A DNA stretch of 64,000 nucleotides, taken from positions 1 to 64,000 of the forward strand of contig NC_063068.1 of assembly GCF_022605165.1 (NCBI RefSeq), read 5' to 3'. Positions 1-32,500 of this stretch are shown one piece after another. This DNA comes from Purpureocillium takamizusanense. Lineage: Eukaryota; Ascomycota; Sordariomycetes; Hypocreales; Ophiocordycipitaceae. Every line of letters starts with the position of its first letter. Position 1 is the stretch's first letter. The position numbers and the translations under genes were made by a program. The notes beneath the pieces were generated by a model that saw only the letters and a program-made list of their open reading frames with translations, did not search any database and was not told where the DNA came from.

Positions 1-155
1 CCTAACCCTAACCCTAACCCTAACCCTAACCCTAACCCTAACCCTAACCCTAACCCTAACCCTAACCCTAACCCTAACCCTAACCCTAACCCTAACCCTA
101 ACCCTAACCCTAACCCTAACCCTAACCCTAACCCTAACCCTAACCCTAACCCTAA
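1..155. repeat. Telomere repeat array
   Basis: Twenty-five uninterrupted copies of CCTAAC followed by a partial copy, starting at base 1. This is the C-rich strand of TTAGGG, the usual telomere repeat of filamentous ascomycetes, read into the chromosome, so base 1 is at or near a chromosome end. The array is perfect and ends abruptly at non-repetitive DNA, with no degenerate copies at the junction. Confidence 0.98.
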
Positions 156-2927: not shown

Positions 2928-3504
2928 GCTGGCAGAGGTTGTATGAAAATTGCCGTATCAGTGCGGTGTGGGTGTTCGGCTTGGAGGCAGGATCAGGGCT
3001 GGCCAATTCAATACGGCTCCCCGCAATCGTGGCCTGCCATCTTGTGCTGCTGGACCATCATATATGCGGTATTCTCTGGCCCGCGTCGAACCTTGACCGC
3101 TGACGTGTGATCATGCGCTCGCCACTGCGGAGTCGTTCTCATTTTCACCACGTGTCTGGAACATGCATGCAGCTCTAAAGCAATTACGCTGTTTGTCTTG
3201 ACCTTGCTCTGTAGTCCAATTGATGGGAGTAAGCACAGGAGCACAGCCGATGGGTCATACTTCGGATCTTCCTCTGCCCAGCGTCTAACGTCCCGCCACA
3301 TCGTTGCGGTAGCGAAACATTAGCGTAATGCCATGGCACGATAATGGAAGCTACTGCATGCCTCGATACGTGTCGGTTCTAGCTTAAGTGCGGCACGACC
3401 ATAACTAAGACATATGCCATCCCTAGCTTATCTACTAATAGATTCTATACCCCTCGTTATGCCTTATTGCTACGAGCATCAGGCCTCGCGTAAGTTGCCG
3501 TTTT
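2928..3504. other. Intergenic, no supported gene
   Basis: Lies upstream of the P450 relic and presumably includes its former promoter. A 97-codon open frame on the minus strand (3008-3301) has no recognisable feature. Nothing else is visible. Confidence 0.5.
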
Positions 3505-3594
3505 GAATTTCGCGGTTATAGAGCTAACTGTATCGAATTTCGCGGTTACTAGGCTAGCTATATTGAGTTTTGCGGTCACTAAGCTAGCCGGATA
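3505..3594. repeat. Three tandem 30-bp repeats
   Basis: Three head-to-tail units of exactly 30 bp: 3505-3534, 3535-3564 and 3565-3594. Each begins GAATTTCGCGGTTA or the variant GAGTTTTGCGGTCA and has a GCTAGC/GCTAAC core. Copies differ mostly by transitions. They sit at the left border of the AT-rich block. Confidence 0.85.
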
Positions 3595-4440
3595 AAGTCT
3601 CGTAATACTTAAACTTCCTTTTGCTATATTAGGGTAAGTAGCTAAGGTCTTATTATTATCTTATAGGATTTTATAGCTCGGAAGAAGGATTATATAATCT
3701 CGAATAAGCTAAAATTATCGGAAATCTCTAGAAAAAAAAATAATAGGGATCCCTTTAAATATATTATTAAATCCTTAAAATTTATAAATACTTTCGTTAA
3801 CTAAATAAAGTATATACTTATTAAAGTATTAACTAGATTAAATAAGAAGAGGTTATTTTTAAAAGCCTAAGTTATAATACTATTATTATAGCTATATAAA
3901 GGGCTAACTTATTATAAATAATGCCTTATAATAAAGTCTCTTATAATAATATATTAGTTAGCTATTAGCTACATAAATAGTATCTCTAAAGTTATATTAA
4001 TACTTAGTCCTTAATAGATATTGACTATTATTACGCTATTAATAATAAGCTAAAGGATATATTAAGATAATACGAGGCGCTATTAGTCTATTAAGAGTCT
4101 TATATTATAGCGTATATATATTATAATATATAGTTAGGTATTATTATTTTCTTAGGTATTAACTAATAAATAAGTATTATAAGTAAGGTATATCTTAATA
4201 AAGTAGTAGGAATTATATATTTATATTTAAGGCTTTTATAATAAGATAATATTATTTTATTTTATATTAGTAAGCATTAATATATAGTCATATAAAGGGC
4301 TATTCTTATTAATATTAACTTAAAAGACCTAGGATAGTTATTTATTACGGTATTATTATTTAGGTTATCTATTTATAAAGATAAGTCTAGGGAGTTATAG
4401 TGGCGCTTTTTAAGTAAAGTAATTAGCTATAGGCTAGAGG
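3595..4440. repeat. AT-rich block, probable RIP-mutated repeat relic
   Basis: About 850 bp composed almost entirely of A and T with very many TA dinucleotides, in sharp contrast to the GC-rich DNA on both sides. All six frames are full of stops. Such sharply bounded AT islands in ascomycete subtelomeres are typically transposon copies degraded by repeat-induced point mutation. I cannot name the original element: no inverted terminal repeats or transposase motif survive that I can see. Confidence 0.7.
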
Positions 4441-5759
4441 GGCGTAAGTCTAGGTCTAGAGTTCTAAAGAAGACGTTGAAGTTCGAAGGCACTGGGAGGT
4501 CTCTCGTAAGGCTCGGGTCTTTTTGAGGAGGAATTGCCAGCGGCTTGGAACCCAATTTGAACTCGTTGACTGGTGTTTGAGAAAAGGCATTCGCGATCAG
4601 GAACTCGCCCCAGGCATTCGGATGGAGGCCGTCATAGCCTGCAGTGTCATTATTGTCAGCATGCTTCCAAACTTGCCACTCTTCGTAGCCGTCGCTCACC
4701 TGCGGGACAACCCCCTGGTTGGCAATTATAATTTTGCTCAAGATCAACCAAGTGGATCGGAGACTGATGAGTCGACCACTTCGATATTGCATTTGGGAGC
4801 AGGTTATTGTAGATGTTAGTGTTCTTCACCAGGTCTTCTCGACCGCCAATGAAGCTGCGCTGTGGCACGTTTGCAACTGCAAATTGGAGTTCTGGATTTA
4901 CCGCTCTGGCGTTTGAAATCAGGGTGTCCATGCTGTCGATGGTGCCCTCTGCGTCGCTGTAGAACCAGCCCATGTCATTGAAGCCAAGCATGGCCAGCAT
5001 GAGATCGGCTTGATTCTGCTCCAGAGCTGCTTGGATGAGGCCTTTGTCTACAGCGGCCGGTCGTCCCCAAAGACAAAAGTGGTTACAGTTCGACAGAAAT
5101 GACCCATCTACACCTTTGGCGTAGCCACCGGTAGCGTCAATTGGCGCCAGCGTCGGAGTAGTGCCGTACAAAGGGGGAGGCTGTGGTGGTGATGAAGGCT
5201 GGGGCGTCCGTGTTCCTGTGTAAGGACCCACGAATTTGACGATTCCATTTTGCTGAAACCATTGCCATATGCGGTATCGCCAGGTCCAGTCGCCTTCCTA
5301 ACCTTGGGACATGGAGTCGCCGACGATCATGACTCTCAGGACATCTTGACGCCCAGCAAGAGTCTTTCCAATGGCGGAAGTGTTTGTCGACGCGATTAAA
5401 TGCTCCACCATTTCTTCGGAATCTGGCAAGCTGATGCCAGCCTACAGTGGGGGCAATGCAGGCGCCAGTCGACTGACGACAGCATATTCAGGGAAAGTTG
5501 CGATGTTTGAGGGGATTGGTACAGCGGGTACACTAGAAAGTTGCTGAAGCTCTGCCGACACGGACGCCGCTACCTTGACGGCCGATGCGAAAGCTATATT
5601 AGTCTTTGTCGCATTGCTGGCCTGCGTCTTTGCCGTGTCGGCCACTATCCCAGAGGTCGTGACTGCCGCATCGACCAAACCAATACTTGAAACGAGCGTC
5701 AAACAAAAAGAAAGAGATATGAGATTTGAAAATGACATTGTAGAATCCGACTCGCGCAT
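4427..5759 (-). pseudogene. SGNH/GDSL hydrolase, inactivated and 3'-truncated
   Basis: Minus-strand gene for a secreted lipase/esterase-type SGNH hydrolase. The likely start is the Met at 5738 (MSFSNL, then a hydrophobic signal peptide ending near VDAA); an upstream Met at 5759 is also in frame. Catalytic blocks are all recognisable: GDSMSQG (Ser nucleophile), GFNDMGW (block III Asn), and DGLHPN (block V Asp-His). A good intron lies at 4639-4699 (GTGAGC donor, CTGACA branch, CAG acceptor) and joins CPAG to YDGLHPN in frame. The frame is broken by two TAG codons, at 5442-5444 and 5298-5300, the second just after the catalytic block. Recognisable family sequence fades near 4460, where the AT-rich block begins, so the usual C-terminal region is missing. 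Both stops fit CAG-to-TAG mutation. Confidence 0.85.
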
Positions 5760-6274
5760 TTACGGAAATTCAGGACTGGATCGCGATGACCAGGCATGAG
5801 AGTTGTCATCGGAGCGCTCGCTACATCCACTTATGCTTTTCGCGATTAATAACATTTATTCACTGCATCATGTCACATACATGAATATTGCAGCCTTGAC
5901 ATGTGAAACGTACGCACTCGAGCCTCTTGCCGGCTGCTAACGGCCAATAACTTGCGCGGCGATGGGCCCTGTCGCTTCGTCGACCGAGGCCAATGCAGGG
6001 GATTCTGCAACGGAAATTAATTATCCGTTGAATACTACCGTGACATTTAATAATTGGCACAACCATGTATGATGTCCTGCAGCCCGAAAGACGCCATTGC
6101 GCCGGACCAAACCAGGCAGAATAGCACTTTGTTTGTGGGCCAGGGGTGTCACTCACGAGGCGATTGAAGAAACCACTCTCGTATAACACTTGTCGCACAA
6201 GCTGTCTACCGTGGCATGCCTATTGGGCTAACATTACACCAACTTTTCTCTCGCACTTTTGCTGATGATCAAAG
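5760..6274. other. Divergent intergenic region
   Basis: Separates the GDSL relic (minus) from the secreted-protein gene (plus) and so must hold both promoters. A 112-codon minus-strand frame at 5860-6198 shows nothing recognisable. No repeats seen. Confidence 0.5.
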
Positions 6275-7499
6275 ATGTTGCGAGCCAATGTCAGCGTTCT
6301 TGTCGCTTTGGTTTGCTTGATCTTGATCCACTGCAATGCTCGCGTAGTAGATCACTCATTTCCGCAAAACAGGCCGGCGTACGTGCAAGATGCAGGCAAA
6401 TTAAGCAAGCGAGAGACAGTGGGCTAACGCGCGTAGCGACAGGTACACCGTTGGCCTCAGCAAAAGGGATGGCAGCAAATCTTGCCTATCAGTCTGCGCT
6501 CCCAATACCTGCGGAGCATCATTTTGCGATAAGCACAAAAAGCGCAGTCTGCTCGACGTTATCAACTTTCCAAATGCCACAACCCATGTGGGACCTGACT
6601 CATATGCACATCTCCTCAAACGTCAACTTGAAGAGATTGAACAAGACGGAATCGGAGAATACCTTGAAGGTCAAAGCGAAAGGAACAATGTGGAAAAGTT
6701 ATGCCACTATTCCGCTGGAGGTTTTTATGGTCCCAGCTTTTGCGTTCAGCATAGATTTGACACTGCGCCCCTCGATGGAGGCCAGTACCTAGCCGGCACG
6801 GCCGACACAGAACTCACAGGCTGTATAGTCTTGACAGTTGTGTCTGCTCGTGCTGTCTATATGGTAACGCCTTTTCATATTCGCTCTGCTACTGTATCCG
6901 CAACACGCCATGACTGATCATGGACTACGACAGTGTCACTTCTGGGAAGATATCCACTACCAACCGGCTGGTCTGGACGGCCGAGTGCGTCCCTTTATCG
7001 GTTTTTACGCTGTCCTCAACATGATAAGAGGTCAAGGGCCTACACCTGGGGCTGTCGGGCCTGCTCTTAGCAAAGAGCTGTTTACTGGTTCCGACGATCA
7101 TGCCTGGGCGTTCATCATGGCACCGCGTAATAGAGCTCAGCCCAATAATGAGGTATTACGGTCGTGGCAGGCTGAGTACGATGATTTGTAAGTGCGCTTC
7201 CCCTCCTCTCCCCTTTAAATCGCATTCTCAACAGTGCTTCGGTATATTGATAGAGCCTCGCTCTCATCAACAGGCGTGCTTTACTTCAATCGCTCGTACC
7301 TGGAATTGGAATCACGTCGTATAATTACAGCCCTTTGTACCCGGCAAATAGGCAGGGGATACCTTGGTGGAGGGGCGTCGCCCTCTTCGAGTACGACGTC
7401 AACGCTGACGGACATGGTCTGGCAGACTGGCGTCTTTGGATGGAAGCAACAAGTTTCAGAGGCCGAAACCTGGGTTTGAACGTAGCAGGACGTAGTTAA
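6275..7499 (+). CDS. Secreted protein of unknown function, 334 aa
   Basis: Four exons, 6275-6378, 6443-6863, 6934-7187 and 7274-7499, splice to one 334-residue frame; all introns have GT-AG ends (GTACGT, GTAACG, GTAAGT donors) and the first has a GCTAAC branch point. Residues 1-23 form a clear signal peptide. After a KR site comes a Cys-rich patch (SCLSVC, NTCGASFC), then a segment reading LTGCIVLTVVSARAVYM joined by splicing to CHFWEDIHY, and a C-terminal part with YNYSPLYPANRQG and DVNADGHGLADW. The GC...VxVS...VY...HFWE pattern reminds me of a widespread family of uncharacterised fungal secreted proteins, but I cannot assign a function. It is intact although it sits between decayed genes, which suggests it is under selection or recently arrived. 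Effector-like is inference. Confidence 0.7.
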
Positions 7500-7552
7500 A
7501 CATGCATCTAGCAAGAATTTGCAATAAAAATATGATCCTGTTCGGAACTCGA

Positions 7553-8923
7553 CTATCGACTTTCATACTCTTTCCGCTGGAACTGTCTCCATTGAGCATA
7601 CAAAGGATTTCCTGTAGGCCATGAACAAGGGTCAAGAACATAAGTAATGGCGTAGCGAACATTGTCGCCTTCTCTCTCTAGCCGTTCGGACTCAATGGTC
7701 TGTCCAGGGTCAACTTCTTCGACTGAGAACCTTCCAAAAGGGTACCCGATCCTAGATCTCGCACCGCCAGCGAAAAAAACCATTCGATCCTCGTATAAGA
7801 CATCAAAGTAAAGTTTCGTCATGTTTGCCAGCTTGCTTGTGCAATGATCCATGATCGATCGAAATGTACCAGCGTCAAGATACACCGTTTCTAAAGCCAG
7901 CTCGCGGACTTCTGTTCGCTTAATAAACTCAAGCAAGTCCACTTCCCTAGCAGTGATCCCGCGGAGTCTGCAACGCCCGAGGGTAGGCAGCCTTTCCAAT
8001 TCAACGACACGTTGTAAAATCTTTTCGCTACCGTACCCAGAAGTCATGCCTGCAATGCGGACGGAAAGGTAGTGTAGCTCGAAATCCTCAAGCCGGGGAC
8101 ACAGTGCAAACAATTTTGAGAGGCCTGAGAAGTTGCAGTCGTCTTCCGCTTCTGATCGTATTTCCGCTGCATCTCTCTTTACCTTTGGCCAGTTCTCCTC
8201 ATCCTCGTCTCTGTCTTTGTGGTACCAGAAACGTCGAGTTGAAATGCTGATCGATAGCGATCGTAGGCTAACAAGTGACTCGGCGATTCCGGGGTCGTTC
8301 CAGTCAATTATATTGAGTTGATCGCTAGCCAGGCTGCATTGTTGCATCTCCGCGTCGTTGAGAATATTGAGATTTTGGATTCGCAAATTGCTCGCCGCCA
8401 AGGCACGTAGGGCTGTGTCAAATGTGTACACAGTGCATCGCCATAACTTTTTCTTGGACATACTGAAGGGCTTATCAGCGGGTAAGACCCTTTGTTTATC
8501 GTTACGTACAACGACTACCCTCAGCGTGAGGGATGTGAGTGTCCCCGTCCCGCTATGTTTTGCAAGGCCATTGAACGCTTGACTGAGCAATGCTATTCCA
8601 TGCGCCCGGCTCATTGTCTCTTGGCGCGAAAGATCTCGGGTTTGTCGTTTGCTTGCCTCAGCTTCTTCGGCAAGCCCAGTGAGGGAAAGTTCCTGCACGA
8701 GGCACGGAAGTCCTCCACCCTGGGCCAATTGAGCAAAAGTCCGTAGAACTTCGTTTGTCAAGTCCACGTGTTTTAATTGGAAGAAGCTTTTGAAGCGATG
8801 ACATGACGACTTCACCGCCAGAGAGCTGCAAGTCAGGCGGAGGTTCCTAATGTCGTCCAGGTCTAGCAGTTCGATAAAAAGCTCGATGACGTGGTCTGGA
8901 CAGCTTTCTAGACTTATTGCCAT
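7553..8923 (-). CDS. F-box domain protein, 456 aa
   Basis: Single-exon gene. Residues about 4-45 form an F-box (LESCPDHVIELFIELLDLDD, then IRNLRLTCSSLA), followed by several hundred residues with leucine-rich, LRR-like spacing (e.g. LTSLTLRVVVV, LVSLRSLSISIS, RLEDFELHYLSV). F-box proteins bind Skp1 and bring substrates to SCF ubiquitin ligases; the C-terminal part would select the substrate, which cannot be predicted. Many such genes expand in subtelomeres of filamentous fungi. The frame is uninterrupted. It converges on the secreted-protein gene, with 53 bp between the two stops. Confidence 0.8.
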   Translation of the reverse strand: MAISLESCPDHVIELFIELLDLDDIRNLRLTCSSLAVKSSCHRFKSFFQLKHVDLTNEVLRTFAQLAQGGGLPCLVQELSLTGLAEEAEASKRQTRDLSRQETMSRAHGIALLSQAFNGLAKHSGTGTLTSLTLRVVVVRNDKQRVLPADKPFSMSKKKLWRCTVYTFDTALRALAASNLRIQNLNILNDAEMQQCSLASDQLNIIDWNDPGIAESLVSLRSLSISISTRRFWYHKDRDEDEENWPKVKRDAAEIRSEAEDDCNFSGLSKLFALCPRLEDFELHYLSVRIAGMTSGYGSEKILQRVVELERLPTLGRCRLRGITAREVDLLEFIKRTEVRELALETVYLDAGTFRSIMDHCTSKLANMTKLYFDVLYEDRMVFFAGGARSRIGYPFGRFSVEEVDPGQTIESERLEREGDNVRYAITYVLDPCSWPTGNPLYAQWRQFQRKEYESR

Positions 8924-9136
8924 ATTGTCGTTAGTCGCTAAGCAACCAAAAATTGTAGAGATGACGGCCTTTGCGGATACCTAAGTACCTTTTATAGGTC
9001 TCGGCGCCCTGTCGAATTATAGGGCAGCTAATTATAAGCCTAGGAATAGGCAGACGCCCTACCTTACCTGCCTAATATAGTGCGGTATATAGTGGGATTA
9101 ACTCCGGAGGGCAGTGGGATTAGGCGCACCGGCTTA
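8924..9136. other. Short AT-leaning spacer
   Basis: Separates the F-box gene from the end of the extended phosphotransferase frame. Around 8985-9120 it is enriched in TA and TTATAGG-like words, milder than the 3595-4440 block but similar in flavour. Possible small RIP-touched remnant. Confidence 0.4.
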
Positions 9137-10273
9137 TTAGCCGGCTGCCGTCTGCTCCCCTTTCTGCTCCCTAGCCCAATCACTTCGGCTTACTAACTCG
9201 AGCCACCAGGGATGTTCCGACGCAGTGGAATAGGCGGCCAGAGGCGGGTCACCCTGGTCCTTGCCTAGAATCTGGGCGAGTTCGAGCCATCCTCTCGTTC
9301 GGTTTGCCTGCCGGGCTTCGGGTGTCAAAGCCCACTGCGAATGTCGACTCAAGGCTATAATAAGCTGCTCGACCTCCTACATCCTGTCCCATTCGGAACA
9401 GTCAACATTGCGCAATCGCTGCTCCAAGAGACAGAACCAAGAGCCATCAGGGTGACCTTGGGATAGCCTTTTGACCGTAACCCATTCCCAGCATGGAGGG
9501 AAGAAGCCACTGCTTTCCAAGTCGATTATACCACAAACCTGGCCGTTGGCGACCATAATGTTGCCCCAATCCAAATCTCCATGTGTGAACACGTTCGGCT
9601 GCTTGCTGACTGCTGCGCTTCGATCGTCAACAAATGCAGTAATGTCCTCATTCCATGAGTAGTCCCTGACTCTCTCCCTACAGAAATCCGTGGCAGTTCG
9701 TAGACCAGTGCGAAGTGGCTGTCTCTGGAGAAGCGCGGCTTGAATATTCGACGATTGCAGCTGGCGAAGTTGATGGATGAAGGTCACAACCTGATCAGCA
9801 ACGGATTCCCGCTCCTGAACTGACAACATGGGCCAAGCCCTTTCTAGTGTTGTCCCCGGCATCCTGTCCATGAGGAGGTGTTCAAAGTCCGCGGATCGAT
9901 AGTACTTGCCGACGTGAGGCACCGGAACATTCGTATTTGCCTTGACGAGCTCAAGGTTGCGTTTTTCCGCACTCAGGTCAGATCGGCCGATTCTAACAGA
10001 CTTGCATACTGACTGATCTTGTCGGACACTGATCTCTCGGTCGACAATCTGGCCCATGGAGAATGGGTGGGTGATCTCGTGCAGTACCTTGAGAATGTCG
10101 CCGTCGTTTGCAGGTCGCGGTTCATTGAAATGCGAGGCACGGAGGTAGTGCTTGGTCGCCTCTCGTCGAGTATGGCAAGTGGGGGCGTTGGTGAAAAAGT
10201 GTCCTTGTGGGACAGGACTGTCTAAAAAATCTTGCATTCTTCGAAGATTGGGACCGGTGGAAGCTTCATGCAC
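9137..10273 (-). pseudogene. APH/choline-kinase-like phosphotransferase, interrupted by a TAG
   Basis: A 298-codon frame (10273 to 9377) has the aminoglycoside/choline phosphotransferase fold: ANTNVPVPHVGKYY in the N-lobe, MPGTTLERAW at the hinge, Brenner motif THGDLDWGNIM (residues 230-240) with the catalytic Asp, and IIDLES (249-254), where Leu replaces the more usual Trp. A TAG at 9377-9379 stops it, but the same frame stays open for 79 more codons to 9137 and still reads like the family's C-terminus (WALTPEARQANRTRGWLELA, EHPWWLEL). The simplest reading is a Trp codon turned into a stop, so a recent pseudogene. Alternatively the protein really ends at 298 residues. Substrates of these fungal enzymes are mostly unknown. 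Confidence 0.6.
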
Positions 10274-10780
10274 GAATATGAGGACCGTCGTGGAATTTGC
10301 AAACGGGAGTTGTTGCTGTCACCGACGCCAAGACCCTGTCAGTGTCGCATGTAAATACCTACCTAATAATCGGGATGGCAGTTTCACGAAGAGCCTCCAG
10401 CGGGGCATCCGCGCCGTTGCAGCGCCTGGTCTACGGGCCACCAATCAAGGCCGGTGAGTCACCGGCGGCGGCTTACTACTTCGTACGTGTGAGGCTATCG
10501 CTCTTTGCGGTCGCCGGCCTGGATCAATCATCAGACACGGCAGAGCGGTGCCGCCGTGAGATGACGACTTGGGGCGGCGGGTTCATGTGGAGAGGTTGAT
10601 AAGAGCCGCCACTGGGCACCTGGCCGATGAACAACAACTGCCTCTTCGGTTCACTTCTGCCCTTTCAAACCGCCGCCGTCGCCTTGTCTCTTTCTTTGCG
10701 CCGACAGCCCGCCCTGTCGTCCGTCGCTATTCCAGACCGGGTTCGATAACGAGTGCCGTGCTCAAGTCTCGTATACGACG
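10274..10780. other. Divergent intergenic region
   Basis: Lies between the phosphotransferase-like gene (minus) and the GrpB gene (plus). It contains one copy of the 9-mer TACTTCGTA at 10477-10485, discussed among the findings. No gene supported. Confidence 0.5.
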
Positions 10781-14892: not shown

Positions 14893-16232
14893 ATGTCCTC
14901 GGGCAACTCAACCGGCGCGCGCATGAAGGACTGCACCCAAGTCTCCTTTGGGTGCCCCGTCGAGGGCACCGTGCTGGGCTACTACCCCAACCTCGGGTCT
15001 GGCATCTTCTTCACCATCGCCTTCGCGCTGTGCCTCTTCGCCGCCGCGGGCCTGGGCGCGTGGAAGCGCACCTGGACGTACGGCGCGGCCATTACCGTGG
15101 GCTTGATTCTCGAGACGGCCGGTGAGTTGTCTCTTTTCTTTCTCTCTCTCTCTCTCTCTCTCTCACTCTCTCTCTGTCTGTAATGCCGCCGTGACCATGT
15201 TCTTGTTCCCAACGCGAAGCCGGACACGTGGCTTCTTGACTTGAGTTGCGCAACTTGAAGTTGAAGAAGAAGAAGAAAGCAGGTTGGTAATGAAGAGACT
15301 GACTTTGGACACCACAGGATACGTCGGCCGCATCCTCCTCCACTACAACCCCTGGAACAACGGCGCCTTTGAGCTCCAAATCTGCGCCATCATCCTCGCC
15401 CCGACCTTCATCTGCGTCTCCGTCTACCTCACCCTCAAGCACGTCGCCCTGCACCTGGGAGGGCCGACGCGCCTCTCCCGCATCCCCCCCGCCTGGTACC
15501 CGCGCATCTTCCTCCCCGCCGACCTCACCTGCCTCGTCGTTCAGGCCATCGGCGGGGGCATCGCCGCCGCCGCCGGCCACGAGAACCGCAAGCTCCAGCG
15601 AGCCGGCAACCAGGCCATCATCGCCGGCGTCGCCCTGCAGGTCGTCGTGCTCGCCCTCTTCGGGCTCATGGGCGCCGACTACTGGCGCCGCGCCGCGCGG
15701 CACGTGTCCTCGGGCAAGGCGTCGCGGGAGACGCTCGCGCTGTGGAACGATGGGAGGTTTCGGCAGTTTGTGTGGGCTGTCACGGCTGCGTACATGGCCA
15801 TTCTCGTGCGTTGTGTGTACCGGTGAGTCCACAAACAACGTCCCTTCGACCCTTCCCATCATCCCTATCTTTCTCCCTCCGCTCTTCCTCTGTGCTGGAC
15901 CTCTTCCTGTGCTTGGAACGCCCACTGACACATTACCGGCACATCGCAGAATCGTCGAGATGAGCGGCGGCTGGGGCAACCACATCATGCAGGACCAGCC
16001 CAGCTTCCTCGTCCTCGACAGCACCCTCGTCCTCATCGCCGTCTACCTCCTCACCATCTTCCATCCGGGCATCTTCTTCCCGCAGATGCGCAACGGCTAC
16101 GCCAAGGACATGGCCCGAGCGAACCCTGACCACGCAGCCGCTGATGCGGAGCGCGACGGCGAGAGTGACGAAACCAAGAATGAGACGCCCGGCTCAGCCA
16201 ACGAGAGGTCAAAGGTTGAGCAGCCGGCTTGA
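14893..16232 (+). CDS. RTA1-like seven-helix membrane protein, 338 aa
   Basis: Exons 14893-15121, 15318-15822 and 15950-16232. The product has about seven hydrophobic helices, e.g. GSGIFFTIAFALCLFAAAGL near residue 35. The spliced ETAGYVGRIL and the following N-W-N-N-x-x-F-x-L-Q stretch match the RTA1 family, as do FLPADLTCLVVQAIGGG and the late GNHIMQDQPSFLVLD. The C-tail is acidic and soluble. Yeast Rta1/Rsb1-type proteins are membrane proteins linked to resistance to aminocholesterols and sphingoid-base export; a transporter mechanism is not firmly shown. Intron 1 carries a (TC)n tract at 15141-15176. Start is the Met directly after a long leader. Confidence 0.88.
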
Positions 16233-16458: not shown

Positions 16459-18934
16459 TCACTGCTTGACCAGCCTATCATTCTCCCCATCGTCGTCACT
16501 CTCCTCTTCCTCTTCCTCCTCCTCATCCTCCTCATCCTCATCGCTCTCTTCCCCTTCTTCCTCCTCATCGTCCGTCTCTTCTTCCGTCTCATCCTCCTCC
16601 GTCTCTCCATTGTCTTCTTCCTCGGCCAGCCAATCATCCAGAGTTTTGGCGCCAACCTTTTCGCCGAGACCATTCGCCCTTTGCGGCGGCGTGGCCCGGG
16701 CTGCGTCGTCAAGCCTCTCCGTTGCGGGCGTAGCCTTGTCGCCGTCGTGGCGGGATGACGGCCCGCCTCCATTCTCGTCCCGGAGTCTCGGATCCGGCTC
16801 CTTGCCAGCCTCGACCCAGTCCGGCAAGGTCTCGTATCCACTCAGGCCGTGAATGCCGCCTCCGCCGGCCAGGACCAACGTTGACGACCCGAGCAGAAAG
16901 CCCTTTCTCGATTCCGACGGGCTCGGGGCCTGTGGGGCAGGCTTAGGGGCCAGGAGCATGAGCGTCGCCAGCTGGGGGACGCCCAGCAAGGATCGATACA
17001 TTCTCGCCCGGTCTCTGAGGTCGTACGACGTGTCGTACCTGACAAGCAGCACCACATAGTCCCACAGCCTTTCAATCGGATGCTTGTCCAACTCTTGCGG
17101 CGGATCCTCCTCGGCTGCCCTTTCTTTTTCGGCCTCGCTCTGGCGATTAATGTGGTGCAGGTAGACCTTGGCGGCGAGCAACAGGATCTGGCGCTTGGCA
17201 GCCTCCGACTCGCTCACAAAGTCCTTGAGAAGGATTCGCAAGACGTCTGGTGCAATATTGTCCTCGCCATTGAGTCCAGAGAACTCGCCCACAAGCCAGA
17301 TGATGGTGGCCCGGGCCTGCGGATCCGTGGCAGAGTCGAGGTTCTTTGCAAGCCTTACCACGGTGCCAACATGGCCCTCAGCATCTTGCTGTATCAGGTG
17401 GCGGATGACCGTCAGAGACTCGGCGGCGAGCGTCCCATCTAGACTCGTGATCTGCCCTAGGAGCAACTTTAAGCACCGGGGGGCCGTCGTCACATCGGAC
17501 TGCGCGCATCGTCCGATCGCGCGAACGGCTTCTCGCACCAGCGCCTTGTTCGACCCTTGCGAAAAGTGCTCAAGCTCCTTCAGGATGAGGCTCTTGACAT
17601 GAATGGGGCTGTGGGGAAAGATGATGGCCAAGACCTCCAGTTTCAGTTCCCAGACGGGCGCCGTGTCCGTCGACTTGACCAGGAAGTGGCTGGCGTACTT
17701 TACAAAATCCGTTGGCCGGAGGAGGCAGACCGAGACGATGTTGTAGAGGGCAATCTGCTGGATGTCCTGGGCCCCGCGCAGCAACGCAACGAGTGGACCG
17801 ACGGCGAGTTTGACGTACTCGGGCGTCCCGACAGCGACGTAGCACCGCGCAACGGCGACAACGACGGCAGAGTTGCGGCTCTGGAGCAGCGGTCGTAGGG
17901 CGTTGAGGAGGAGGAGCAGGTCGGGATTCATGGAGGAGCCGCGGCCCGAGGCAGCACCCGTGGACTCGCTGTAAAAGTCATCGGTCGAATTATCCTGTGT
18001 AGGGCTCTTCGATCCTTGACTCCGCGGGAAGCACTTGCGCGCGTAGCAAGTCATCAGACGCAGCATGGCCAACTGACTCCACTCGTCCATGTCCACGATC
18101 TTGCGCACCAGGGCGCGGTAGTGCTTGTGTATCAGGTCGATGCGCTCGGGGCAGATCTCGAGGAACGAGGATACTGCCGCGCCGGCGACGTAGTATTGCT
18201 TGTCGCCGAGAAGGGCGGACAGGTATTCGATGAGCTGCGGCGACTGGCTAGGGTCGAGGCGGTAGCACTTGGGGATGGCCAAGGCGGCGGCCTTGCGGAC
18301 GTAGGGGCTCATGTCGACGACGCCCTTCTTGATGGCAAGAGAGACGATCTGGCTGATGACGGGGACGCGGATGCCCGACATGGTCTTAAGGGCGAGGGCG
18401 CGGACCTGGGGGTTGGTGTCGGACAGCGACTTCTGGATGGTGTTGATGGAGAGGAGGGCGAGGTCGGGCTCGTGCTCGGCGTGGTGGATGAGGTAGATGT
18501 AGACGAGCTTCTTGATTTCGATGTTGGGCGAGGCGACATTCTTGACGACCGAGGAGAAGAATGGCAGCGTCTTGTGGTTTCGGTACATCATCTAGAAGCA
18601 TCGTCAGTCGTCTCCGTCCGTCTGTCCGCCTGGCTAGACCGCGTCGAGGCCACGACGACAGCAGTGCGTGCGTGCTCACCGAGATGACCCGTCGCAGGCC
18701 GTCGAGAATCTCCCGGTCATTCCTGCTGTCGAGGAGCTTCCTCATCTGGTTGCGATCGAGCGGGCGGGCGCTGGTTCGCATGTTGCTCATGTTGCGCGTC
18801 GCCTGGGCGGCATCGAGGGTCAGCTCTCTCGCTGCGGAAAGAGTCGTCGTTAGCAGAGGGGCGGGGACAGACAAGGGGATGCGGCATCGCTCACCAGTCT
18901 CCATGAGACCCGAGATCCTCGCTATCGACTCCAT
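16459..18934 (-). CDS. APL6: AP-3 adaptor complex subunit beta
   Basis: Exons 18934-18895, 18831-18680 and 18591-16459, 774 residues. The large beta subunit of the AP-3 coat builds vesicles carrying cargo from Golgi to vacuole. The spliced N-terminus reads MESIARISGLMETG, ARELTLDAAQATRNMS; the trunk shows adaptin/HEAT repeats including LVYIYLIHHAEHEPDLALLS, NPQVRALALKTMSGIRVP and MSPYVRKAAALAIPKCY. A 100-residue Ser/Pro-rich hinge is followed by a strongly acidic tail (EEEDNGETEEDETEEE region), as in fungal AP-3 beta. No separate ear domain is visible, as expected for fungal members. It converges on the RTA1-like gene, with 226 bp between. Confidence 0.95.
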
Positions 18935-20802: not shown

Positions 20803-21711
20803 ATGCAGGACTGTTCTACGTACATCCTCCCGTGCGACCTGCGCGAGGCTGACCCCCGACTCCTCCAGCTAGGCACCGTCCTTCTCCATCCGACCGACAC
20901 CTTCCTCACGACGCATCTTGACGCCCAAAGGCTCGCCCGTGCCGCCAAGGTGGGGATCCACACGTACGTCGAGCGGAACGTGCAGGTGATGCAGCCGCTG
21001 CTCTTCGACGAGGTCAACTACCTCTTCCCCGTGCACCCCAACAAGGTGGGCACCTTCAAGGCCAACAGGCAGATCCCGCGGCACCTCCTAACCCAGCTCG
21101 AGGTCGTGCACTTTACGGACCCCCCCAGTGGCAAAGAGGTGGCCTCCATGCTCAAGGCGCACCCAGTCATCAAGGCACACCTCGAGCTGGGCGTTGTGAA
21201 CTACCAGCCCGTGTACATGGTCACGGGCCTCATGATCGCCTCGGACATGCAGTACCGCGAGCGGCCCGCACCGATGCCGACGCGGACCCCGGCGCGGGCG
21301 CAGGACATGGAGCGGAAGCTGGTCATCGAGCCCGAGGCACGGGAGGCGCTGACGGCGGTGCTCGAGAAGTCGAAGCGGCACCAGGACAAGGAGCTGCCGC
21401 TCGACTTCTTCCAGGTGTCCCCCAACGGAGACTCCACGACACCCCGGCGCATGGAGGTTGACCCGCTGCGGATCATGGCCAAGCCCGACCACATGGTGGC
21501 CATGCCGGGGAAGACCATCTACGCGTACAAGCTCACCAAGATCGACGTGAGCAGGTGGATGGGCTCCGTCGCGAAGCCCGTGCCGGAGCCGGTCCTGACA
21601 AAGCAGGGATACATGGTCCGCTATCGAGACGTTCCCGTCGGGCACGTATACACGGCGAGTGTTGAGGTGCCCGCAACTACCAACTTTGACTGCGTGTACG
21701 GCGGTTGGTGA
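20803..21711 (+). CDS. Candidate gasdermin-like (RCD-1/HET-Q1 type) protein, 302 aa
   Basis: Single-exon gene without signal peptide or membrane helix. Three segments resemble what I remember of a fungal family related to the cell-death proteins RCD-1 and HET-Q1: the N-terminal DLREADPRLLQLGTVLLHP, the central strand NYQPVYMVTGLMIASDMQ (about residues 139-156), and PGKTIYAYKLTKIDV (about 235-250). The last two sit where vertebrate gasdermins have their conserved YVVTE and SGxxLAFRV strands. Between them lies a charged, variable linker, as in the pore-forming fold. Fungal members cause allorecognition cell death by permeabilising the plasma membrane. No protease gene of the HET-Q2 type is adjacent, so an RCD-1-like, protease-independent mode is the more natural guess. 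Family membership is from memory and needs a profile search; it could be an unrelated uncharacterised protein. Confidence 0.55.
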   Translation: MQDCSTYILPCDLREADPRLLQLGTVLLHPTDTFLTTHLDAQRLARAAKVGIHTYVERNVQVMQPLLFDEVNYLFPVHPNKVGTFKANRQIPRHLLTQLEVVHFTDPPSGKEVASMLKAHPVIKAHLELGVVNYQPVYMVTGLMIASDMQYRERPAPMPTRTPARAQDMERKLVIEPEAREALTAVLEKSKRHQDKELPLDFFQVSPNGDSTTPRRMEVDPLRIMAKPDHMVAMPGKTIYAYKLTKIDVSRWMGSVAKPVPEPVLTKQGYMVRYRDVPVGHVYTASVEVPATTNFDCVYGGW

Positions 21712-22274
21712 GATCAACCGGTTTGCGGCACCTCGGGGGAGGGGTCTCCGAGGCTCTCGAGTTGTCAACAATAAGCCCAAAGTCCGGTGTTGCGAACACA
21801 TGAGGGGTGATCATGTCAAAGGTGCGTCAGCTTGAACCAGCCAGGCCTTGATCGAATGCATCCTCGCGCTGGTCGGGTTTCCCCAGCGGCGGGAAGTCTT
21901 CTCGTACGCCAGGTCGAAACGAGGCGACAACTCGGTGCCATTCGGTCAAGTAATCCATATTCTTTGTTACTATTGCCTAAAACCCATTTCATGTGTTGTG
22001 CGTTCTGACTCTGAGTGCGTGTAAGTCTGTGTCGTTGGTTGGGATTGCCTAATTCGGTCAGTACTCAGTAATCGGATCGACAACGCCCCGCCCCCACCGC
22101 CCACCATCAATCATCATCCATCACCCATCCATAGCTATCTATCACACTCAAACCTCCACCATCATCATCACCCTCACACATCACAACAACACAGACAACC
22201 ATCACAAGTCCGCAAACAACGATGCCAACCACGTCCGCTCACGCCCACCCTCGGCTCGTCATCGAACCGTCGCC
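21712..22274. other. Intergenic, same-strand spacer
   Basis: Contains the 3' end of the gasdermin-like gene and the promoter/leader of the next gene. From about 22085 on it becomes rich in CA and CATC (TCATCATCCATCACCCATCC type), a leader-like composition. No gene supported. Confidence 0.5.
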
Positions 22275-23297
22275 ATGACTCGCGGCGGCGGCGGCGGCGG
22301 CGGCGCATCGTCGCCCCTTCCCCCCTCCCCCTTCCTGCTCCCTCCCGCGACGCCGTCCGAGCTCCTCACGCACACGCTCGCACACCTGAGGCACCCAACC
22401 ACACTCATCGTTTGCTGGCCCAAGGAGCAGTTTGTCGAGGCGCTCGTGCAGGACGTTCGCCAGCAGCAACAGCAGCAGCTGGAGCAGGAACAAGAAGAGC
22501 AACGGCCACACGTAGCACCGCGTGGCGACGACACAGCAGATGAGAATGGAGAAGGGGGCGCGGGCGCGAGCGCGAGCACGGCAGTCGATGCTCAAGGGGG
22601 GTCCGGTACCGCCGAGAGCCAGCAGCGGCCCGCGATACCAGCCCAACAACTCCTCTCCGCGACCCTCCTGCAGGTCTCCATCTCGCGCCACATCCGCATG
22701 CTCTTCGTCCCGAGCGTCGTCCACCTGCGCGCCCACCTTGCCGCTTCCTCCTTCTCTGGCACCATCTCGTCATCTTCTACCCCTCCTCCTCCACCGGCGG
22801 GACACCCGCCGCCACAGTCCGACATCATGGCCCCGCCAGCAGGGGATGGCAAAGGCGGCGACGGCGACGACGCCTGTCCCCGCAACAGGAGGCCGACAAC
22901 AAGGCAGCACCACCGCCAACAACAACACCGACCTCTGCTCCTCGTCTACGGCCTCTTGGAGCTGCATCGCGACGGCACCGAATGGTCCGCCCGAGGGCTC
23001 AACGCCTCGCTCGCGGAGCTCGTCGAGTGCGCCGCTCGCTGTGGTGGGCTGGTGCCCGTGCTCGTGGAGCCAAGGCGCATGGAACGCGACAAAGGCGCTG
23101 ACTTTGGGGGCCAGCATCATCACGATGGAGGGGCCAGCAGCTGCAGCAGCCCCGAGCTGCTGGCCGCCTTGGCAGAGCCGGTGCCCATCTTGAGCGGTGC
23201 GGAGCGCCGGCGCGACGGTTCGTGGCGTGGCAAGACGGTGCCCATCAGGAGGGTCCTCGCGCGGTGGTTTGACGTGCCGCCGCCGGCTGGTGGGTGA
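22275..23297 (+). CDS. Uncharacterised low-complexity protein, 340 aa
   Basis: Single-exon open frame; I do not recognise the family. It begins with a run of Gly from a (CGG)n tract, then a segment of alternating helix/strand character (LTHTLAHLRHPTTLIVCWPK, FVEALVQDV), a Gln-rich insert, LLSATLLQVSISRHIRMLFV, a Pro/Ser/His-rich linker, and finally LLLVYGLLELHRDGTEWSAR with LAELVECAARCGGLVPVLVE. The two ordered parts have the rhythm of a RecA-like alpha/beta domain with no Walker A motif, as in some recombination-mediator or Elongator subunits, but that is only an impression. Its 3' end faces NUF2 at 229 bp. Low-complexity inserts may be strain-variable. Confidence 0.65.
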   Translation: MTRGGGGGGGASSPLPPSPFLLPPATPSELLTHTLAHLRHPTTLIVCWPKEQFVEALVQDVRQQQQQQLEQEQEEQRPHVAPRGDDTADENGEGGAGASASTAVDAQGGSGTAESQQRPAIPAQQLLSATLLQVSISRHIRMLFVPSVVHLRAHLAASSFSGTISSSSTPPPPPAGHPPPQSDIMAPPAGDGKGGDGDDACPRNRRPTTRQHHRQQQHRPLLLVYGLLELHRDGTEWSARGLNASLAELVECAARCGGLVPVLVEPRRMERDKGADFGGQHHHDGGASSCSSPELLAALAEPVPILSGAERRRDGSWRGKTVPIRRVLARWFDVPPPAGG

Positions 23298-23526: not shown

Positions 23527-24995
23527 TTACTGCCCAATCGTCTGCTCCATCTCCGTTATGTACAGCTTGATGTGGGCCTCCATCTTGAGGTACTCATCGT
23601 ACGCGGTGTGGACCTCGTTCTCGATGTTCTCCTTGAGGTCGAGCATCTAGTAACGTAGCGGTAGTCAGCCAGGAAAGTCCCGGGAGAAGCAGACGCTGAG
23701 AGGGAAATGAGAGATGGGCTTACCTTCTTCTCCGTCTGCTCGATGCGCACCCTCCGAATCTCCATCTCCTTGGTCTTCTCCGTGTGCTCCTCCGTCAGGC
23801 GTTTATGGACGGCCCGCAGCTCGTGCATCTTCTCCTTGGCCTCGTGCGCCTTTTGCCCGCTCTGCTCGCGGAGCTTCTCCGTCCGCTCCGTCCACTTGGC
23901 CAGCTGCCGCCGCAGCATCTGCTCGGCGCGCTCCACCTCGCGCGCGTTGTTGCCCCTCTCGGAGAGCGCGTCGCGCTGCTTGGCGTTGCGCGCCATCTCC
24001 TCCTCCTCCTTGCCCAGCTCCGCCGCGATCTCGTCCAGGATCTTGATGCACGACGCCACGTCCGCCGACACCACGGTGAAGGAGTCGGCCGACGTCTGCA
24101 GCGCGCGGGCCCGGCGGTCCAGCGCGTCGATGTGCGCCTTGTCGTTGTTGAGGATCTCGCGCAGCTCCGCGAGGTTGTCCTGCAGCGCCGACGGGCTCTG
24201 CAGCATGTACGGCCGCAGCTTGGCGCTCTCCTGCTTGAGCGTCATCTTGTCTTGCGTCCGTTGCTCGAGCGCGCTCGTCAGCTCGCCCTTCTTCTGCTTG
24301 GCGTCCTCGAGGCGCATCGCCACCTTCTTCTGGTTCTCGCGGAGCTCGAGCAGCCGGCTCTTGAGCTCCTCGTTGCGCATCGTCTTCTCCCGCACCTGCG
24401 CCTCCATGGCCTTGCGGTTGTGTCGCATGTCCTCGAGGCGCGCCTCGTTGTCCTGGTTCTCGGCGTAGAGCGTCTCGATGCGCGACTTGGCCGACTCGGT
24501 CTTGTTGAAGTGCTCGTCGATGACGCTCGTCTGCGACTCGCGGAAGCGCACAAAGTTGATGAGGTAGCTGAAGATCTTGACGAGCCGCTCGTACGTCGGC
24601 TTGTACAGGTCGTTGAACGTAAAGTCGGTGATGCCGCACTCGAACAGAAGCCTCCGCAGCGACACGTAGAAGCCCATGAGATTGCGAGTGTCGGGTGGGA
24701 TCACGTCGGCGAACTCGCCGCACACGTCTTCCGCCGCGGCGCGCATCGCCGGTTCGACCGTCTCGCGCGTCGCATTGAGCAACAGCTCGGCGAACCACTC
24801 GAAGATTTGTTGCACGTGCGACGGGTTCGGTTTCTGCAGGTCGGCAACGGTAAAGTTGATGCCTATATCGGTGATGCAGCCCACGATCTCGCGGTCGGGC
24901 AGGCGCATGAACGCGTCGGCTTCCTCTTCCTTCTTGCGAGACCGGCTCTGCTGCTGGTTCGAGGGGATGATGCTCATCCGCGGGTTGTATGCCAT
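23527..24995 (-). CDS. NUF2: Kinetochore protein NUF2 (Ndc80 complex)
   Basis: Exons 24995-23724 and 23646-23527 encode 463 residues. I start at the Met of [16 protein letters not shown]; an upstream in-frame Met at 25010 is less likely. The N-terminal calponin-homology domain (about residues 25-160) is typical: [37 protein letters not shown] and [20 protein letters not shown]. The rest is one long coiled coil that pairs with Ndc80 and binds Spc24-Spc25. The second exon restores the terminal coil ([20 protein letters not shown]). NUF2 links kinetochores to spindle microtubules. Extended open frames on the opposite strand here are codon-bias shadows. Confidence 0.97.
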
Positions 24996-25433
24996 CTTGA
25001 AAGTTTGCAAGCGGCGCGATTAATGGGTTGGTTGTCGCGTTGTATGTCGGTGATGTGTCGCGCTTGGCTCTTGGAAGGCGGCGCGATAAACACTTGACGC
25101 GTTGCTGGAGGAACACTGGGCCCCACGACGGCACGTGACTCAACTCGCCTTCACAACCACGTTCACCAAGCACGAGCCCTCACGTCATTGCTCAGACGGA
25201 TCGCATTCCTAAGAAGTGATGGTGCACGATAAATGAGTATACCTATCTAGATTCAAATGAACAGTCTCTTCATCTGATATGGTCGTCACAACGATGCGGT
25301 CCATCCTCTCACCACTCGCAACGCGCTCTGCACACATCATGTCCACTTCTTATATCGTAAACGCTTTCTTATACAAACGCACAGCGCATGTCTCCAATTC
25401 GTAGTCGTACACTTCTCCCCATCCGCCGTGCCT
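24996..25433. other. Intergenic
   Basis: Promoter of NUF2 and 3' flank of the thioredoxin gene, which run in the same direction. No gene, repeat or structure noted. Confidence 0.5.
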
Positions 25434-29527: not shown

Positions 29528-32500
29528 GGTGGCGTCGGGTTGTGTCGTTTCGCGTGGGATCAGTTGCAAGTCGTCGTTGTACGCGAGTCGGATGTTATGA
29601 CAGGACTAGGCGGCTCGTATGGTTGCATCGTGGTCGTGTAATTAAATGTCGGGTCTCGAGGTCATGCATTCGCCAGACAAATCGTTGGGCGCGGCGACGG
29701 TGACCGCCCGTGCGGGTGTTCGTGGCACGGCGAAAAATACGCTGGTGCTATATCGGTCTCGGCGACGACGGGGAAGGGTCCGCTGAAGACACAGGCGAGC
29801 GACAAGAGAAGGGCCGTGCAGCGCGTGTGGACGATACGCGTTGGGTGCCAAAGGAGCGAGGCGCGCCGCTGTGGTATGCAGCAATCAATCGGCTCTTGCG
29901 GTGTGCCGGCGCTGCGGGGAGTAGGGTGAGTTTGACCTTTGCTTCGTTCCTCCCGAGGGCTTCCTTGGCGAGGGCAGGATGTAAATGCGAGTCGTCGAGT
30001 CGAATACGTATGGAAGCAGCCCGTCTATCGGTTAAGATGCCCCAGCGTGTGGAGTGTTGAGAAGGGTCGAGGCGGTGGCAGCAGATGGCCCTGGATAAGA
30101 TGTGCGTGCGTGCGTGCGTGCAGGCGAGCGAGGGGGCGATACGAGCAGGCAGAGGAGCAGAATCGAACAGAGAAGTTGGACCCAACGTAATTGGAGCCGA
30201 GGGTGGCGGGAGGGAATGCGATTAAAAATGGCGGCCATTCCGCCTGGGGGAGCGGCCAGGATGGCAGGATGGGAGGGCCGTCGACGGCGTCTGTCTGTCT
30301 GTCTGTGTGTGGGCGTCTCTGTCCCGCCTGTGTCTGTGTGAGCGAGGTGGCTGTCGTGGGCCCTGCCAGACCAGAAGGGGGGGAGGAGTCGCTGGGGATG
30401 CTTGCTGGGACTGGGCGGATACACGTCCCGTGGGGCGCTGGAGAAAAAGGTAAAGTAGGTATGTACCTCGACTTGGCACAGTACGAAATGCAACAGCAGC
30501 GGCGGGGGGAGCAGGCAGGACTGAGCTGCGTTGCGGCGCCTCCCCAGGTAATGGATCCATCCACCCTTGTGCCCTTCCCTCCTTCCGTCGCCGCCTCCTT
30601 TAACCTCCAACCATTCACGGTCCAGGAGCAGTCACGTCTGGACGCCCGCTCTGTGCTTGTTTCTTGGACGAAATGGCTGGGGCCCGTCATGCACTGGATT
30701 GGCGGACAAAGCACTGACACCATCCACAATTCCACTTCAACACACTCACTCCCATCCCCGTCCACTCCTGGATCGGGCCCGCCCACTGCCGCTGCCGCCC
30801 ACCCTGGCATCCTGGCCTGGTCTGGCCTGGCCTGCCCGGCAAAAGACGGCGGGCTTGGCTTCCATTGCTTGGAACGCTGAAGCGTCCGGGATGGAGCGTG
30901 CGCTTGGTTCTTATTAGCGTCCTGTCCTGCTGGCTCTTCCCACCGATCGGGGGGGCCACGCTCGGGAACCCGCCGCCACGGACGCATCCAAGGTTGCCCG
31001 GGTTGGTGGCGGGACTGGCTGGCGAGGAGCGGCGCCTTGGGTGGTGAGAGACCTTCCAGGGCTGTGCCGCAGACACTCGACCAGGAGCGCCCCAGGACAA
31101 GCTTGTCGTCCGCCCCTGAGTGCGAGGGCATCTTCGGGGGGCATTGAGGCGTAGGTTGCAGCACGCGCCTCACAGAAGGCGCAGCACAGGCTGCTCAGCA
31201 CAACACGGGCAGCACGCAGCACAGGCGGCGACGATGGAGACGGCTGCTGGGTCGCGACCCATCAGTCAGTGGGCTGGCACCCGCCCCGCCAACAGGCGGG
31301 CAGAGTGTGTGGATGGCGTCGGGTGGGATCCATGGCGTGGAATGGAATGGCACCAGCAGGCTCCGCCAGCCGCCTGCCGGGCTCCCGCCATGCACGCCGT
31401 GCAATTCAGTCCAAGCGGCCGCCGGGTTGGGAGGCGTCGACCCGATCCGGGCGTATGGCTTGCCCCGGAGCAATTTTTGGCTCAACCCGCTGCGGCCGAG
31501 CGATCAAACGTCAGTGCTGAAAGCCTTGGAGCCGCCGCTCGGCCAGAAGAGCCTGTTTGACCGCGGGAGAAGCCCCTAGGTCCCAGAAACAATCTCCACC
31601 ACACCCATCACGGCGCTGGCTGACTGCGCTGCCTCGACTGCCTCCCCGAAACTCGATGGCGGGCGACCGTGGCTGGAAGACAAGCCCACGTGCATTTCGC
31701 ACAGTACCACCATCAAGGCATATTGGAGCTTACCTACTAAGAAAGTAACTGCTACCAGGTAGGGGGTGCGGTCCCTCGCACAGGCTGCCTGCCCTGGCAG
31801 CACACCTAGCACCAGACAGCTTGTTGGCGGTGCCCGAGGGTACCGGGCGGCGGCATTCTCTTTCCATGCATACGCAACAGCGCCTTACCTGGGTCAGGCA
31901 GACACTCTTTCTGCTATAAAGGGTAGGTAGATACTGTACATGCTACGCATCACCAACCGGCCTACAAAACGCGAAGAGTCGGAAGGCCCCATTGGGACAA
32001 AGTCGCCTAAATAAAAGCTGCACGGTATCATTTTGTACTTACTGTACCGTGCTGCATTGTGCAGTGCAGTCAGCCAGCACAGGCTGGAGGAGCGGGCTGG
32101 CTGGAAAGTGCAGGCGCTACTGGTCCCTCTTTGCTCCTGCCCTCTCGATGGATGTTTCCATGATGCAAGTTCCAACACTCCATGCCGGCCCCGCGTTCCG
32201 GCCAGCCAGCAATTGTCATTGCCACGCCCTCAGACCACCATGTATGTCCGTCCCATCCCAGCTTGTGTGCCGTTGGCTTTGTTGCTCGATTGCGCAACAA
32301 TACCACCAAATCCGTCCACCTCAGCCACCAACCGCTGCGAAGCACCCAGTATGCATAAGGTCCGGCATGTACGGTACAGCACAGTTTGGACGCAGGCACA
32401 ACACAGCACCGCAACGCACCGCACCGCACCGAATCGCACGCACCGGGGGACACACCGATCGTTCCAGATTCGACCGCCCCTCCCGGTTCCGTCCCGTCTT

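What the first reader, a model, noticed from the sequence alone, without database searches (positions are those of the whole stretch)
20803..21711. Candidate gasdermin-like cell-death protein
A 302-residue single-exon protein has three stretches in the order seen in fungal gasdermin relatives: DLREADPRLLQLG at the N-terminus, VYMVTGLMIA in the middle and KTIYAYKLTKI later, the last two falling where vertebrate gasdermins have YVVTE and LAFRV strands. Fungal gasdermins (RCD-1, HET-Q1) execute allorecognition cell death. If confirmed this is a possible incompatibility or immunity gene; the lack of an adjacent protease would favour an RCD-1-like mechanism. Family assignment rests on recalled motifs, not a search.
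Basis: partly seen in the sequence, partly recalled or inferred. Interest (0 to 1): 0.75.

Follow-up and report, generated by a model that had tools for sequence, protein, structure and literature searches.

The report
Divergent fungal gasdermin without neighbouring protease
The gene encodes a strongly diverged member of the fungal gasdermins, a known family of membrane-pore proteins that kill cells, and it sits near a chromosome end without the protease gene that usually accompanies such genes.

Summary

The genome holds seven further gasdermin-like loci found here; six have a subtilisin-type (S8) match within 6 kb. The window gene's nearest is 979 kb away. It lies 20.6 kb from a telomere. 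It groups with neither this genome's RCD-1-like nor its HET-Q1-like gene, and has a conserved 48-residue tail (about 5 kDa).

Most likely it is a latent pore-former freed by tail removal through an unlinked protease; RCD-1-like partner activation and changed function stay open. Pore formation and allorecognition were not tested. New member of a known kind.

The parts
20803..21711 (+). Open reading frame of the fungal gasdermin-like protein (P0001, 302 aa), single exon
   Evidence: coding composition; family by profile; fold
20836..20874 (+). N-terminal stretch DLREADPRLLQLG (residues 12-24); residues 1-29 are 24 of 29 identical to P0002
20923..20949 (+). Short helix, residues 41-49, with R46/K49 kept as K/R in P0002 (candidate membrane-binding helix)
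   Evidence: the role is inferred from RCD-1 as described in PMC12881547 (passages)
21133..21189 (+). Two short helices, residues 111-129, with K111 and K124 kept in P0002
21211..21240 (+). Stretch VYMVTGLMIA (residues 137-146) in a predicted strand; aligned through the family profile with VYMITGIIVA of RCD-1-1
21268..21495 (+). Segment between the last two core strands (residues 156-231), longer than in relatives, low model confidence
21511..21543 (+). Stretch KTIYAYKLTKI (residues 237-247) in the last core strand; aligned through the family profile with the VWAVRLAKI region of RCD-1-1
21565..21708 (+). C-terminal tail, residues 255-302; 33 of 48 identical to P0002; candidate inhibitory piece
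   Evidence: the inhibitory role is inferred
1..154 (.). Telomeric (CCCTAA)n array: the gene lies 20.6 kb from a chromosome end

Best explanation
A fungal gasdermin (fGSDM) of a diverged lineage: residues up to about 254 form the pore-forming gasdermin domain, the last 48 residues a tail. Shown here: family, core fold (predicted), no S8 or CHAT match near the gene, and conservation of the tail in the one close relative. Inferred: the full-length protein is latent in the cytosol; a signal removes or displaces the tail through a protease encoded elsewhere in the genome; the freed domain binds acidic inner-leaflet lipids by its basic helices, oligomerises, inserts beta-hairpins and kills the cell, as part of a non-self or stress response. 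Step confidences: fGSDM membership 0.95; still a pore-forming death effector 0.75; held latent by the tail and freed by an unlinked protease 0.45.
Against: No single-sequence hit in Pfam, NCBIfam or the PDB; the two-row profile of the window protein and P0002 alone does not reach a gasdermin in the PDB (only SEC16 at E 2.1), so the link runs through the wider family. As queries on the genome, P0001 and P0002 find only the window gene, and two of four other gasdermin queries did not list it. Mean pLDDT is 55.9, residues 65-89, 156-231 and 265-302 under 50; Foldseek's own TM-scores are low (0.34 by query, 0.50 by target for the best hit). So hairpin tips and tail, which decide pore formation and inhibition, are not modelled. 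No activator is named. The lineage's stem is very long (4.43 changes per column), so the function may have changed.
Confidence: 0.5

Rival explanations
1. RCD-1-like: no cleavage. Two diverged allelic forms (or a second partner protein) are each harmless, and their meeting after cell fusion builds mixed pores.
For: No S8 match within 979 kb and no CHAT match on the contig; no protease domain among 28 window reading-frame stretches scanned. Best fold and sequence matches are RCD-1.
Against: Conserved 48-residue tail, whereas RCD-1 (257 and 244 aa) is described as lacking an inhibitory C-terminal part. Lies apart from this genome's RCD-1-like gene C5b in a tree that is not firmly resolved. No second close copy in the genome. 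P0002 stands for 19 member sequences in one 90%-identity cluster and no second close cluster was found: weak evidence against deeply split alleles.
Confidence: 0.2
2. Changed function: a gasdermin-derived protein that no longer kills, for example a regulator of other gasdermins or a membrane-binding protein.
For: Very long shared stem (4.43 changes per column) followed by short tips (0.30 and 0.28): fast change, then constraint. N-terminus (24/29) and tail (33/48) are better kept between P0001 and P0002 than the stretch around the middle core strand (11/25). Longer inter-strand segment, no protease partner found.
Against: Core fold and motif order kept; some basic residues on the candidate membrane helices kept. 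Only two sequences known, so rates are rough; bootstrap had not settled.
Confidence: 0.22
3. Chance motif resemblance; not a gasdermin.
For: No Pfam, NCBIfam or PDB hit by single sequence; the first wider relatives were found only at E 0.01-7.2.
Against: Those relatives form one family, its profile reaches RCD-1 without the window protein, and other profiles and the fold agree.
Confidence: 0.03

Closest known systems
[quoted passage not shown] PDB 8JYX, 8JYY, 8JYZ)
   Different: 13% identity over the aligned fold; 302 against 257/244 residues; conserved 48-residue tail; longer segment between the last two core strands; apart from this genome's own RCD-1-like gene in the tree; allele classes unknown.
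HET-Q1 (Podospora anserina; PDB 9UV9), cleaved by the S8 protease HET-Q2
   Same: Gasdermin domain (weak profile match, E 0.058) and a tail of about 5 kDa, the size lost by HET-Q1 on cleavage (PMC12881547, passages).
   Different: No S8 gene nearby; the HET-Q1-like gene of this genome is another locus, C2:4310478-4311398 (phmmer E 5.3e-53). HET-Q1's own tail was not seen and not compared.
Fungal hypothetical proteins of about 295 aa (P0003 and relatives; Botrytis, Trichoderma, Aspergillus, Penicillium) and this genome's C5a gene
   Same: TY.L start, LG..I..P, VYMVTGLMIA, FAYQLLKI..W stretches in the same order; same side of the tree.
   Different: 18-26% identity; their tails carry an acidic run that the window protein lacks; C5a has an S8 match 4.7 kb away.

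Membership tests
Gasdermin superfamily / fungal gasdermins (fGSDM) | Sequence-profile relation to a characterised gasdermin | tested here: met
   RCD-1-1 E 4.4e-10 with a 42-row profile that holds the protein; chain confirmed without the protein. Not reached by the single sequence or the two-row profile.
Gasdermin superfamily / fungal gasdermins (fGSDM) | Gasdermin N-terminal fold | tested here: met
Gasdermin superfamily / fungal gasdermins (fGSDM) | Pfam Gasdermin model PF04598 | tested here: not met
   No match. Not diagnostic for fungi: the same whole-genome search also missed the locus that matches HET-Q1 at E 5.3e-53, so it was not used to exclude membership.
Gasdermin superfamily / fungal gasdermins (fGSDM) | Basic amphipathic helices for lipid binding | tested here: inconclusive
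   R46/K49 and K111, K124 stay basic in P0002; amphipathic faces were not modelled.
Gasdermin superfamily / fungal gasdermins (fGSDM) | Forms membrane pores and kills cells | not testable with these tools
   Needs expression or liposome assay.
HET-Q1/HET-Q2-type two-gene unit | Protease gene (S8 or CHAT) within about 10 kb | tested here: not met
   Nearest S8 match 978,925 bases away; no CHAT match on the contig. The genome search scores only its best candidates, exon by exon.
HET-Q1/HET-Q2-type two-gene unit | Cleavable inhibitory C-terminal tail of about 5 kDa | tested here: inconclusive
   A conserved 48-residue tail exists; inhibition and cleavage untested.
RCD-1 allorecognition type | No inhibitory C-terminal part | tested here: inconclusive
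   48 conserved residues follow the last core strand, whereas RCD-1 is described as lacking an inhibitory part; whether this tail inhibits is unknown.
RCD-1 allorecognition type | Groups with RCD-1 among fGSDMs | tested here: inconclusive
   Apart from this genome's RCD-1-like C5b in the tree, but long branches, an open fork and an unsettled bootstrap; RCD-1 itself was not in the tree.
RCD-1 allorecognition type | Two deeply diverged allele classes, both needed | not testable with these tools
   No strains of the species at hand.

The most novel reading that the evidence does not exclude
A subtelomeric gasdermin lineage that has left the protease-gasdermin two-gene unit, changed fast and then settled, with a new conserved tail: either a second, independent origin of protease-free, partner-activated gasdermin allorecognition besides RCD-1, or a gasdermin turned into a regulator of the other gasdermins of the same cell.
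Probability: 0.25. Interest if true: 0.65.

Novelty: new member of a known kind. Interest (0 to 1): 0.42.

Why it matters
Fungal gasdermins are a large known family (about 1900 in 400 genomes, about 80% beside a protease gene; PMC10197012, passages). In the reviews read here RCD-1 is the one described exception to control by cleavage (passages); what controls other gasdermins without a protease neighbour is open. A diverged protease-free member beside seven more gasdermin-like loci of one genome, an RCD-1-like and a HET-Q1-like one among them, gives a compact set in which loss of the protease partner can be followed and tested.

Tried and rejected
Single-sequence searches of Pfam, NCBIfam and the PDB: nothing. 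The two-row profile against the PDB: only SEC16 at E 2.1, dropped as chance. Pfam gasdermin model over the whole genome: nothing, although clear fungal gasdermins are there. Structure prediction on the two-row alignment failed (mean pLDDT 28.9) and was not used. HET-Q1 (9UV9) does not appear among the rows shown by the fold comparisons; that excludes nothing. One other window frame, 29598-29747 (-, 50 codons), also scores weakly with the profiles (E 0.071; 0.0063 and 0.012): taken as chance. A weak match at C1:667046-667330 with a stop (E 0.95) was not counted as a gasdermin locus. Metacaspase-type peptidases (C14) lie on C3 and at 1.1 Mb of C1, not near. Bacterial promoter and terminator scan: uninformative for a fungus. 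Tail against tail with HET-Q1 could not be compared: the PDB chain has 232 residues and no other copy was at hand. Naming the organism: not possible with the tools at hand; a filamentous ascomycete is inferred from the relatives. Allele comparison across strains and dN/dS: no strain DNA and no DNA of P0002. Literature: Clave 2022 and Daskalov 2020 are not held and are known here through reviews only: PMC12881547 (passages, and section 21), PMC10197012 (passages), PMC11760362 (passages). A paper search for orphan or subtelomeric fungal gasdermins (20 of 259 listed) listed no paper on fungal gasdermins besides PMC12881547.

Rows dropped before counts: A3 holds 30 of the 32 relatives (P0007, P0011 left out as short); A2 holds 16 of the 32; A6 holds 42 of 52 proteins (P0006, P0007, P0009, P0011, P0012, P0018, P0023, P0047, P0049, P0052 left out as short or near-duplicate). 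Set B holds 15 of the 18 new proteins (without P0047, P0049, P0052), and came from a query that contained the window protein among 34 rows. The five sets overlap. The tree holds 23 rows, 14 of them chosen from the relatives. The 28 window stretches scanned for Pfam domains are a choice from the frames listed, and two pairs among them are the same frame. Some own-genome gasdermin stretches (C9, C5b, C7) are partial.

Full report
The observation. Codon-position G+C is that of a real gene (0.62/0.43/0.85). The window begins with a telomeric array at 1-154, so the gene lies 20.6 kb from a chromosome end, past an AT-richer cap of about 10 kb (G+C 0.44-0.52 against 0.56-0.65 beyond). Neighbours are an adaptin-type gene that reads as AP-3 beta (16459-18591, -; Adaptin_N, the AP-3 label from recall) and Nuf2 (23556-25010, -).

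Family. Pfam, NCBIfam and the PDB give nothing for the single sequence. The profile of the two finds 32 further proteins at E 0.01 to 7.2, so below the usual threshold in a database of 5.8 billion. Those with an organism named are all fungi, and 26 of 32 are 290 to 310 residues long. An alignment of 16 of them with the two keeps T6, Y7, L9, L23, G24, the P.YMVTG stretch and the AY.L.K.....W.G stretch in every row. A profile of 30 of them, without the window protein and P0002, finds the window frame at E 4e-10 among 977 frames, both stretches in order (the second weak on its own, i-E 0.46), and the protein at 36.0 bits against at most 6.9 for 2000 shuffles. Because the relatives had been picked for likeness to the window protein, five further, overlapping sets were tried; each puts the window frame first of 977 (E 1.7e-11, 2.6e-13, 1.7e-9, 0.011, 3.5e-9) and the real protein above all 2000 shuffles. 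The weakest, 0.011, is from six of this genome's own loci without the closest one. In two of the five sets an unrelated 50-codon frame reaches E 0.006 and 0.012, which marks the level of chance.

Link to gasdermins. Against PDB sequences the two-row profile reaches no gasdermin. The 30-row profile hits RCD-1-2 (E 4.3e-6) and RCD-1-1 (7.9e-6); with the window protein the 18-row profile gives 1.8e-6 and the 42-row one 4.4e-10 for RCD-1-1, and HET-Q1 at 0.067 and 0.058. In these alignments the middle stretch falls on VYMITG/VYMVTG and the later one on VWAVRLAKI/VCAIRLVKI of RCD-1.

The genome's other gasdermins. The assembly (35.6 Mb, 14 contigs) was searched with six proteins. P0001 and P0002 find only the window gene. 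P0003 finds C5a, C4, C12, C9 and the window gene (E 0.004); P0050 adds C7 and lists the window gene at E 0.146; the C12 protein adds C5b and the C4 protein C2, without listing the window gene. That makes eight loci, a lower bound. C2 is HET-Q1-like (phmmer E 5.3e-53), C5b RCD-1-like (3.6e-33), C9 more weakly RCD-1-like (7.4e-8). An S8 match lies within 10 kb of six of the eight (269 to 5958 bases); a random site has probability 0.024, so six of eight has probability about 6e-9. For five of these six, Pfam confirms S8 over its cut-off in open stretches scanned apart; for C2 only the genome-wide match was seen, which is weak (22.6 bits) and has stops inside. The two without are the window gene (nearest S8 978,925 bases away) and C7 (no S8 match on its contig). 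No CHAT match lies on C1 or C7. This fits the share known from the literature (about 80% beside a protease; PMC10197012, passages), supports these loci as true fGSDM units, and makes the window gene one of two orphans.

What is different here. P0001 and P0002 share a stem of 4.43 changes per column (support 100/100) on the side of the P0003 family and C5a; the fork that parts this side from the other own loci has 90/99 and is drawn open, and the bootstrap had not settled. Between P0001 and P0002 identity is highest at the N-terminus (24/29), in the linker 64-90 (21/27) and in the tail (33/48), lowest in residues 131-155 (11/25) and 156-231 (35/76). The tail has no acidic run, unlike the P0003 family, and holds 4 basic and 4 acidic residues.

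How it most likely works. A conserved tail of about 5 kDa beyond the last core strand is what a HET-Q1-like latent gasdermin would have; RCD-1 is described as lacking an inhibitory C-terminal part. I therefore hold tail release by an unlinked protease as the likeliest control (0.45 for this step), RCD-1-like partner activation at 0.2, changed function at 0.22. None of these was tested; pore formation itself is inferred from the family. That P0002 stands for 19 sequences in one 90%-identity cluster without a second close cluster speaks weakly against deep allele classes; the origin of those 19 is not known.

Verdict. Fungal gasdermins are a known and abundant family, so this is a new, strongly diverged member without a protease neighbour; its interest lies in being an orphan among partnered loci in one genome.

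Noticed in passing
L032 4227-5217 (G000:C5:155227-156217): RCD-1-like gene in two frames (first stretch phmmer E 3.6e-33 to RCD-1-1) with an S8 match 2.6 kb away. RCD-1 of Neurospora is described as not controlled by cleavage, so this may be a protease-partnered relative of the RCD-1 lineage.
   Followed up: partly
L031 4878-5798 (G000:C2:4310478-4311398): HET-Q1-like gene (phmmer E 5.3e-53 to the HET-Q1 pore chain) with a weak S8 match 0.9 kb away that has stops inside, and an NPHP3_N/NACHT-type stretch next to it.
   Followed up: partly
L008 3386-7234 (G000:C4): Gasdermin-like gene transcribed away from an ankyrin-repeat stretch followed by an S8 stretch: a multidomain protease arrangement of the kind described for fungal gasdermin partners.
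   Followed up: partly
L030 4553-5320 (G000:C7:1175053-1175820): A second gasdermin-like locus without any S8 match on its contig, near a leucine carboxyl methyltransferase-type gene.
   Followed up: partly
window 1-154 and 1-10000: Telomeric repeat array followed by about 10 kb of lower G+C (0.44-0.52), with an APH-type kinase frame (9380-10318, -).
   Followed up: no
window 22053-23294: Downstream frame of up to 414 codons with glutamine and proline runs and no Pfam match; identity unknown.
   Followed up: no
window 15284-16232: RTA1-like membrane protein gene split over two frames, so probably with an intron.
   Followed up: no
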